From Candidatus Poribacteria bacterium (GTDB lineage Bacteria; Poribacteria; WGA-4E; WGA-3G), in NCBI GenBank assembly GCA_012267415.1, contig JAAXGN010000156.1:46890-110889 (forward strand): a stretch of 64,000 nucleotides of DNA, read 5' to 3'. The notes under the pieces are model-generated. The model was given only the letters and a program-made list of their open reading frames with translations. It was not told the DNA's origin and ran no database searches. The stretch's first letter is position 1. Every line of letters begins with the position of its first letter. Shown in pieces: positions 25,051-26,391 of the stretch. The translations under genes and the position numbers were made by a program.

Positions 25051-26391
25051 TTAAGTCAGTTCATCCATAAAATTCTGTATAAGTTTTTTGGTTTCTTCAT
25101 CTTTGAGCAATTTTTCAATTTGTTCACAAGCATAGGTAATGGTTCTATGGTTCTGTCTATTAAATGCATCAGCAATATCTGATAGAGAAAGTTGGGTTAG
25201 TTCTCTACACAAGTACATGGCGATTTGTCTTGGATACACCAAAGCTTTTGTCCGCTTTGCCGAAGTAAGATCACCGCTTTTCAACTGAAAATGATCTGCC
25301 ACGGTTTTTTGTATTGTTTTTGCGGTAATGATCTTTTGTTGAGATCTTCTCGTAAACGAGGGGGCATCATTTAGTGCCTTGCGTGCAAAGTCTATATCTA
25401 ACTGCACACCATAAATGGAAGCTTGTGTATACAGACGAAGTAGCGTTCCCTCTAATTGTCGGATGTTTGCCGTCACTATTTCGGCAATATAATTTAGCAC
25501 TTCATCGTCCACATTTTCCAATCCCTGTTCTTGGCATTTACCCTTTAAAATGGCATACCGTAACTCAAAATTGGGTTTGTCTATTTCTGCCACCATTCCC
25601 CATCCAAATCGGGAACTTAACCTTTCTTCAAGGTTTTCAAGCATATCGGGTGAACGATCACAGGAGATCACAATCTGGTTTGAATTTTTGTGTAATTCGT
25701 TGAAAGTGTTAAAAAACTCCTCTTGTGTACCTTCTTTGCGCTGTAAAAATTGGATATCGTCAATCAATAGTAGGTCCGTTTCTCGGTATTTTGTGCGGAA
25801 TCCTTGTGCTGATTCTCGGTTGACAATCGATTCAATGTATTCGTTCATAAACGTTTCAGAGGTAACGTAAAGTACCTTTTCTCGGGGAGTCTTCTGGTGG
25901 ACGCGATTGCCGATCGCATGAAGAAGATGTGTTTTTCCAAGTCCTACACCGCCAAAAATAAAAAGTGGATTATAATCACTGCCAAGATTTTCAGAGACTG
26001 AAAGTGCTGTTGCATGGCAAATCCGGTTACTCGGTCCGACACGAAAACTATCAAAGATATAACTCGGATTTAAACCTGTCGGTTCAGTGTTGTTTTTATT
26101 TTGTGGGGAGACAGAACCATTCCCATCAGGTTCAGGATTTTTCACGAGAGAAGTTTCAACAGATATTTTCACCATGCAATTGGGACTAATCCGATTCGCC
26201 AACACCCTATTGATGTCCCTGACAAAACGATTTTCAATCTCGGCTTGTGTGTAATTGGAAGGCACAGCAAGGTTTAAGCACGCATCGGTTAGCGAACGGG
26301 GAGTGACTTGACGTAGGTAGACATCACTATCGGCTGATTCATCAAGCTCGGTAAGTATTTCTAACCAGAGTGTATCGGCGGTGTGTTGCAT
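25051..26391 (-). CDS. dnaA: Chromosomal replication initiator DnaA
   Basis: 446 aa; NPLFIFGGVGLGKTHLLHAIGN, DLLLIDDIQFLQRKEGTQEEFFNTFNEL, domain IV PRQIAMYLCRELTQLSLSDIADAF. Confidence 0.96.
   Translation of the reverse strand: MQHTADTLWLEILTELDESADSDVYLRQVTPRSLTDACLNLAVPSNYTQAEIENRFVRDINRVLANRISPNCMVKISVETSLVKNPEPDGNGSVSPQNKNNTEPTGLNPSYIFDSFRVGPSNRICHATALSVSENLGSDYNPLFIFGGVGLGKTHLLHAIGNRVHQKTPREKVLYVTSETFMNEYIESIVNRESAQGFRTKYRETDLLLIDDIQFLQRKEGTQEEFFNTFNELHKNSNQIVISCDRSPDMLENLEERLSSRFGWGMVAEIDKPNFELRYAILKGKCQEQGLENVDDEVLNYIAEIVTANIRQLEGTLLRLYTQASIYGVQLDIDFARKALNDAPSFTRRSQQKIITAKTIQKTVADHFQLKSGDLTSAKRTKALVYPRQIAMYLCRELTQLSLSDIADAFNRQNHRTITYACEQIEKLLKDEETKKLIQNFMDELT

What the first reader, a model, noticed from the sequence alone, without database searches (positions are those of the whole stretch)
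25051..25190. DnaA domain IV has changed base-contact residues that match the presence of a divergent box array
Seen: the DnaA signature reads QNHRTITYA where E. coli has RDHTTVLHA. Aligning by eye to E. coli numbering gives P423S, K415R, D433N, T435R and H439Y, while R399 and R407 appear kept. Established: P423, D433, H434 and T435 make major-groove contacts with TTATNCACA. Inference: DnaA and its box have co-diverged in this lineage.
Basis: partly seen in the sequence, partly recalled or inferred. Interest (0 to 1): 0.82.

Follow-up and report, generated by a model that had tools for sequence, protein, structure and literature searches.

The report
DnaA and its boxes changed together
In some Poribacteria the protein that starts chromosome replication has altered DNA-reading residues, and the sites it is expected to bind at the origin changed in step, repeatedly among close relatives, so this may be a natural record of how an essential protein-DNA lock and key can be re-cut.

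Summary
The window is a Candidatus Poribacteria MAG; dnaA (25051-26391, -) encodes a DnaA whose recognition helix reads QNHRTITYA. The dnaA-recF gap (24737-25050) looks like a BUS-type oriC: TTATTATCA boxes next to six DnaA-trios, with no TTATNCACA box. Tested on 68 dnaA loci from 87 Poribacteria genomes, the co-divergence claim is supported, but only for some of the listed residues. K415R, P423S and D433N also occur with canonical TTATCCACA boxes. T435R, 438T, H439Y and 442E (plus 402/403), all in the DNA-contacting part of domain IV, are the only positions in the protein that cleanly separate genomes with TTATTA[T/A]CA boxes from same-genus genomes with TTAT[C/G][A/C/G]ACA boxes. The match is perfect in 16 of 16 genus genomes. 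R435 is not one clade on a tree built without domain IV (p-AU 1.6e-8); boxes and residues change in the same genomes. One genome (G042) is a mosaic: its HTH and box array are T-like, the DNA between and around them R-like. D433N goes with C6 to A or C5 to G, as a permissive state. The binding preference itself is inferred, not measured.

The parts
25051..26391 (-). dnaA, 446 aa, the only DnaA found in the genome
   Evidence: Pfam PF00308 and PF08299; one PF08299 match in the genome; best PDB relative 8btg, B. subtilis DnaA of the BUS complex
25108..25149 (-). recognition helix, residues 415-428 (HRTITYACEQIEKL); R416, T419, Y420, E423 = E. coli 435, 438, 439, 442, spaced i, i+3, i+4, i+7 on one face
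   Evidence: AlphaFold2 helix H415-428; discriminating positions
25144..25146 (-). codon of R416 (E. coli T435R)
25150..25152 (-). codon of N414 (E. coli D433N)
25240..25254 (-). basic loop: R380 (E. coli R399, kept) and A383/L384 (E. coli 402/403), the second discriminating patch
24831..25023 (.). DnaA-box array: TTATTATCA (matched as TGATAATAA) at 24839+, 24883+, 24894+, 24912-, 24950-, 24982-, 24993-, 25004-, 25015-, plus the trio-proximal near-box TGATAATAT at 24831-24839; the last four at 11-bp spacing
   Evidence: same motif found without a preset pattern
24813..24830 (.). six DnaA-trios, (TAG)6 on the + strand, i.e. (CTA)6 directly after the last box when read along dnaA
23549..24736 (-). 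recF, flanking the origin on the other side

Best explanation
The dnaA-recF gap is the chromosomal origin, of BUS type (tandem DnaA boxes, short spacer, DnaA-trios). In part of this Poribacteria genus, DnaA domain IV reads a changed box, TTATTA[T/A]CA instead of TTAT[C/G][A/C]ACA or TTATCCACA. The change lies on one face of the recognition helix (T435R, 438T, H439Y, 442E), with a second patch beside the minor-groove arginine R399 (402/403). Two steps are visible. D433N goes with loss of the strict demand for C at box positions 5-6. The 435/438/439/442 block goes with a preference for T5-A6-[T/A]7. Box number, place and trios stayed the same, so opening should work as in the B. subtilis system. 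Shown: residue-box covariation, repeated switching, positional homology of boxes. Inferred: that these residues cause the preference, and which residue reads which base.
For: Box tallies by DnaA type: D433/T435 or S435, 27 genomes, 185 of 201 boxes TTATCCACA; N433/T435, 29 genomes, TTATCAACA 171, TTATCCACA 66, TTATGCACA 59 of 314; R435, 11 genomes, TTATTATCA 64 and TTATTAACA 24 of 110, none TTATNCACA. Motif discovery with no preset pattern gives the same consensus and 10-12 sites per genome in every group. At the same place before the trios: GTTATCCACTTATCCACAGCCC (D433), GTTATCAACTTATCAACAGCCC (N433), GTTATTAACATATTATCAACCC (R435). Only 402, 403, 435, 438, 439 and 442 separate 45 R-type from 15 T-type proteins, with no mixed type at 435/438/439. 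On a tree of rpoB, gyrB, recF and DnaA I-III, R435 is not one clade (p-AU 1.6e-8), with four changes each for R435 and T5 in the same genomes; eight R/T changes on a larger DnaA I-III tree. G042 is closer to R-type relatives around the locus; only the HTH segment and the box array are at parity or T-like, and the DNA between them is R-like. Non-box GC is alike in R and T types. E. coli residues 399, 423, 432-435 and 438-439 make base contacts (PMC5043019); T435M is defective in box binding (PMC5742627).
Against: No binding was measured. Independent switches with box data are few (four in 16 genomes by parsimony; the independent-pairs sign test on the rpoB tree has too few pairs to reach 0.05). 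435, 438 and 439 are fully linked, so the causal residue is not separable. The D433N step is confounded with ancestry in genus g4 and has an exception with canonical boxes (G078). GC skew is too weak to confirm the origin independently.
Confidence: 0.86

Rival explanations
1. Hitch-hiking by descent: dnaA and the array are neighbours, so an unrelated residue change and box drift were simply inherited together once.
For: The two lie within 300 bp and mostly share history.
Against: R435 is not one clade in the tree without domain IV (p-AU 1.6e-8), at least eight R/T changes on the larger tree, and in G042 the T-like segments are the HTH and the array with R-like DNA between them.
Confidence: 0.06
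2. AT mutational drift of a loosely read array; the DnaA changes are neutral or follow looser reading.
For: All three changed box bases move to A or T.
Against: Non-box intergenic GC is the same in R-type (0.28-0.35) and T-type (0.26-0.32) genomes; the new box is as sharp (12.0 bits) as the T-type box of the same genus (11.7 bits), with the same copy number.
Confidence: 0.05
3. The array is the site of another protein, and DnaA of this clade opens the origin in another way.
For: No direct binding data; 11-bp tandem repeats also resemble iterons.
Against: The repeats occupy, base for base, the place of the tandem DnaA boxes before the trios in relatives; the DnaA positions that track them are DNA-contacting ones.
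Confidence: 0.03

Closest known systems
E. coli DnaA domain IV with its DnaA box (PDB 1J1V)
   Same: Same HTH domain, R399 and H434 kept, TTAT start and CA end of the box kept
   Different: T435R, 438T, H439Y, 442E, D433N; box positions 5, 6 and 7 all changed. A review of studied nine-base boxes found none more than two mismatches from TTATCCACA, Thermotoga's 12-mers being the exception (PMC4285127)
Bacillus subtilis basal unwinding system (BUS, PDB 8BTG)
   Same: Tandem boxes, spacer, then DnaA-trios 3'-GAT-5'; top structural match of the model is 8btg
   Different: Box sequence; the C-rich spacer is missing in the window and its nearest relatives
Epsilonproteobacterial DnaA with T5 boxes (Helicobacter, Arcobacter, Wolinella)
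   Same: T at box position 5; variation at 435 and 438-439 was proposed as the cause (PMC5043019)
   Different: Epsilon boxes keep a TTCAC core and 435 is S, T or A; here 435 is R and positions 6 and 7 change too
Thermotoga maritima DnaA with 12-mer boxes
   Same: Box and contact residues both differ from E. coli; TAG trios
   Different: A 12-base box in a deep lineage, without a stepwise series among close relatives as here

Membership tests
DnaA initiator family | AAA+ domain PF00308 and C-terminal HTH PF08299 above cut-off | tested here: met
   219.9 and 89.3 bits
DnaA initiator family | Minor-groove arginine R399 and major-groove H434 | tested here: met
DnaA initiator family | Usual T or S at position 435 (typical, not strictly defining) | tested here: not met
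   R in 45 aligned proteins of this clade; a variant residue in an otherwise complete DnaA
DnaA initiator family | Binds 9-mer boxes at oriC | not testable with these tools
   needs purified protein
BUS-type oriC | Tandem DnaA boxes followed within about 16 bp by three or more NAN trios | tested here: met
   two adjoining boxes directly followed by six TAG/CTA trios, if TTATTATCA is accepted as the species-specific box
BUS-type oriC | DnaA-dependent strand separation needing boxes and trios | not testable with these tools
   biochemical assay
Canonical DnaA-box origin (TTATNCACA) | Cluster of TTATNCACA at the origin | tested here: not met
   none in 24737-25050 nor in the 450 bp after dnaA of any R435 genome
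Chromosomal origin of replication | GC-skew switch at the locus | tested here: inconclusive
   skew weak and noisy in the window and in 40 samples of the single-contig genome G047

The most novel reading that the evidence does not exclude
This Poribacteria genus carries two alternative initiator-origin specificity types (R-type: R435-T438-Y439 with TTATTA[T/A]CA; T-type: T435-I438-H439 with TTAT[C/G][A/C]ACA) that are swapped between species by recombination of two short, separate segments (recognition helix and box array), leaving the rest of dnaA and the origin in place: a natural two-allele, mutually incompatible replication-start system.
Probability: 0.5. Interest if true: 0.88.

Novelty: new variant of a known kind. 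Interest (0 to 1): 0.76.

Why it matters
DnaA and its box are among the most conserved protein-DNA pairs in bacteria, and T435 is needed for specific binding in E. coli. Here the pair was changed, and changed more than once, among species of one genus, with each stage still living. That gives a ready-made set of matched protein and DNA variants with which to ask which residue reads which base, whether N433 is a bridge that binds both old and new boxes, and how an essential many-site system changes specificity without dying. It also bears directly on the open question why epsilonproteobacterial DnaA needs T at box position 5 (PMC5043019). In practice, origin-finding programs that assume TTATCCACA within two mismatches would miss these origins.

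Tried and rejected
GC skew as independent proof of the origin: weak and noisy both in the window and in 40 samples of 20 kb from the single-contig genome G047; not used. TTATTATCA clusters elsewhere in the genome: only in signal-peptide codons of paralogous WD40 proteins; rejected as coincidence. A canonical-box cluster elsewhere: only one chance-like repeat with equal counts in the reversed control. Reading the array in another register (TTATCAA at +3): rejected because it fails at the trio-proximal boxes and for the TTATTAACA copies. A first motif search that counted both strands apart converged on palindromes and was discarded; the corrected one is. P423S and K415R as determinants: rejected. 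A clean one-piece import of domain IV plus origin into G042: rejected, as silent sites in domain IV stay R-like overall and the DNA between helix and array is R-like. R435 outside Poribacteria: none among the 120 best hits of a search that uses exact five-residue words, which is no proof of absence.

Full report
What is there. The window lies in a Candidatus Poribacteria MAG (5.46 Mb, 170 contigs). dnaA is at 25051-26391 on the - strand, followed after a 314-bp gap by recF (23549-24736), a DUF721-like ORF and gyrB. It is an ordinary DnaA by domains and by fold (AlphaFold2 mean pLDDT 86, top PDB match 8btg, the B. subtilis DnaA of the BUS complex), and the genome's only DnaA C-terminal domain. 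Against E. coli DnaA the domain IV residues are K415R, P423S, D433N, T435R, I/L438T and H439Y, with R399, R407 and H434 kept.

The array. The gap holds nine exact TTATTATCA (12 in the window against 1.13 expected) and no canonical box, even with one mismatch. When read along dnaA, the last two boxes run straight into six CTA trios (TAG on the + strand, 24813-24830). That is the order of the basal unwinding system described for B. subtilis and many other bacteria: tandem boxes, spacer, trios (PMC8287927). The same module stands at the same place in nearly all relatives examined, so boxes can be compared position by position: GTTATCCACTTATCCACAGCCC in D433 genomes, GTTATCAACTTATCAACAGCCC in N433 genomes, GTTATCAACTTATGCACACCCC in T435 members of the window's genus, and GTTATTAACATATTATCAACCC in R435 members. 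The changed box is therefore a substitution in place, not a new repeat elsewhere.

The comparison. Of 87 Poribacteria genomes, 76 gave a DnaA match; 68 loci were used. Boxes of the form TTATNNNCA within 450 bp after dnaA sort by DnaA type. D433 (27 genomes): 185 of 201 are TTATCCACA. N433 with T435 (29 genomes): 171 TTATCAACA, 66 TTATCCACA, 59 TTATGCACA of 314. R435 (11 genomes): 64 TTATTATCA and 24 TTATTAACA of 110, no TTATNCACA. A motif search without a preset pattern gives TTATCCACA, TTAT[C/G][A/C]ACA and TTATTA[T/A]CA for these groups, with 10-12 sites per genome in each. G021, with V433, has TTATACACA boxes and no TTATCCACA, a further hint that position 433 matters.

Which residues. K415R is found in all aligned Poribacteria, P423 is variable throughout, and D433N also occurs with canonical boxes. 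These cannot explain TTATTATCA. Comparing 45 R-type with 15 T-type proteins, only six positions over the whole length separate them almost completely: 402, 403, 435, 438, 439 and 442. 435, 438, 439 and 442 lie at i, i+3, i+4, i+7 of the recognition helix (window residues 415-428); 402/403 lie beside the minor-groove R399. Published base contacts in E. coli include 399, 423, 432-435 and 438-439 (PMC5043019), and T435M and R399A are defective in box binding (PMC5742627). In epsilonproteobacteria, whose boxes have T5, the same positions 435 and 438-439 were suspected.

Not one event. The dnaA gene and the array are neighbours, so covariation could be mere common descent. A tree of rpoB, gyrB, recF and DnaA I-III, without domain IV, rejects R435 as one clade (p-AU 1.6e-8) and needs four changes for R435 and four for T5, in the same genomes. 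G042, with T435 and TTATCAACA/TTATGCACA boxes, nests with full support inside R435 species; rpoB alone agrees. On a larger tree of DnaA I-III there are eight R/T changes. In G042, 90-bp windows are closest to its R-type neighbours along dnaA and recF. Two stretches differ: the HTH codons (parity or slightly T-like) and the array (T-like, 81 vs 74 and 67 vs 63 percent). The end of dnaA and the DNA between helix and array are R-like (70 vs 44, 61 vs 17, 68 vs 30). Silent sites over domain IV as a whole stay R-like. So what tracks the boxes is the reading helix, not the gene as a whole. Whether this is short-tract recombination or parallel change is open; the shared silent bases in the helix codons of G042 and G037 favour recombination.

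AT drift does not explain it: GC outside boxes is 0.28-0.35 in R-type and 0.26-0.32 in T-type origins.

Mechanism (inferred from here on). Domain IV of R-type DnaA should bind TTATTA[T/A]CA through the 435/438/439/442 face in the major groove while R399 reads TTA in the minor groove as usual. The bound DnaA should then load onto the trios as in B. subtilis. D433N probably came first: it is the state of most family f1 members, including those with mostly canonical boxes (G057, G069, G074, G078), as expected of a permissive bridge. The order within the 435/438/439 block cannot be read, as no intermediate was seen.

Limits. No binding data. Few independent switches with box data; the sign test on independent pairs cannot reach 0.05. 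D/N in genus g4 is partly confounded with ancestry. MAG contigs may hold errors, though the G042 locus sits in a 199-kb contig with R-type DNA on both sides. GC skew does not help.

Relation to the known. It is a DnaA and, by sequence, a BUS-type origin. What is new is the box, which differs from TTATCCACA at three positions where a review of studied nine-base boxes found at most two (PMC4285127), and the residue-by-residue covariation with repeated switching inside one genus. No paper in the library searched joins Poribacteria with oriC in any relevant way or reports TTATTATCA as a DnaA box; subscription journals are mostly not in that library.

Noticed in passing
G021 (locus L129): A natural D433V DnaA (EVHTTVLHA) with TTATACACA and TTATGAACA boxes and no TTATCCACA, unlike its D433 relatives.
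   Followed up: partly
genomes G013-G023 (families f2, f3): Most carry a second, shorter DnaA-like protein (open frames of about 390-440 aa, 36-43% identity to the window's DnaA from about residue 100 to 433), absent from the window's genus. Its function and boxes were not looked at.
   Followed up: no
P0044 (protein on a 5.08-Mb contig): A possible third type, N433-T435-L438-R439 (QNHTTVLRA), nested among R-type proteins on the DnaA I-III tree; its origin could not be fetched.
   Followed up: partly
window 22866-27225; G000:C27:21112-22595: dnaN is not beside dnaA: the gap is followed by recF, a DUF721-like ORF and gyrB, and two adjacent beta-clamp (PF02768) matches lie on another contig, C27.
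   Followed up: partly
window 1-64000; G047: GC skew is weak and changes sign locally, in the window and in samples of the single-contig genome G047, so skew-based origin finding would fail here.
   Followed up: yes
L188 (G000:C156:24000-40000): Tandem paralogous WD40-repeat secreted proteins; two share a signal-peptide stretch (PLII.LLS) that by chance encodes two TTATTATCA in a row.
   Followed up: yes
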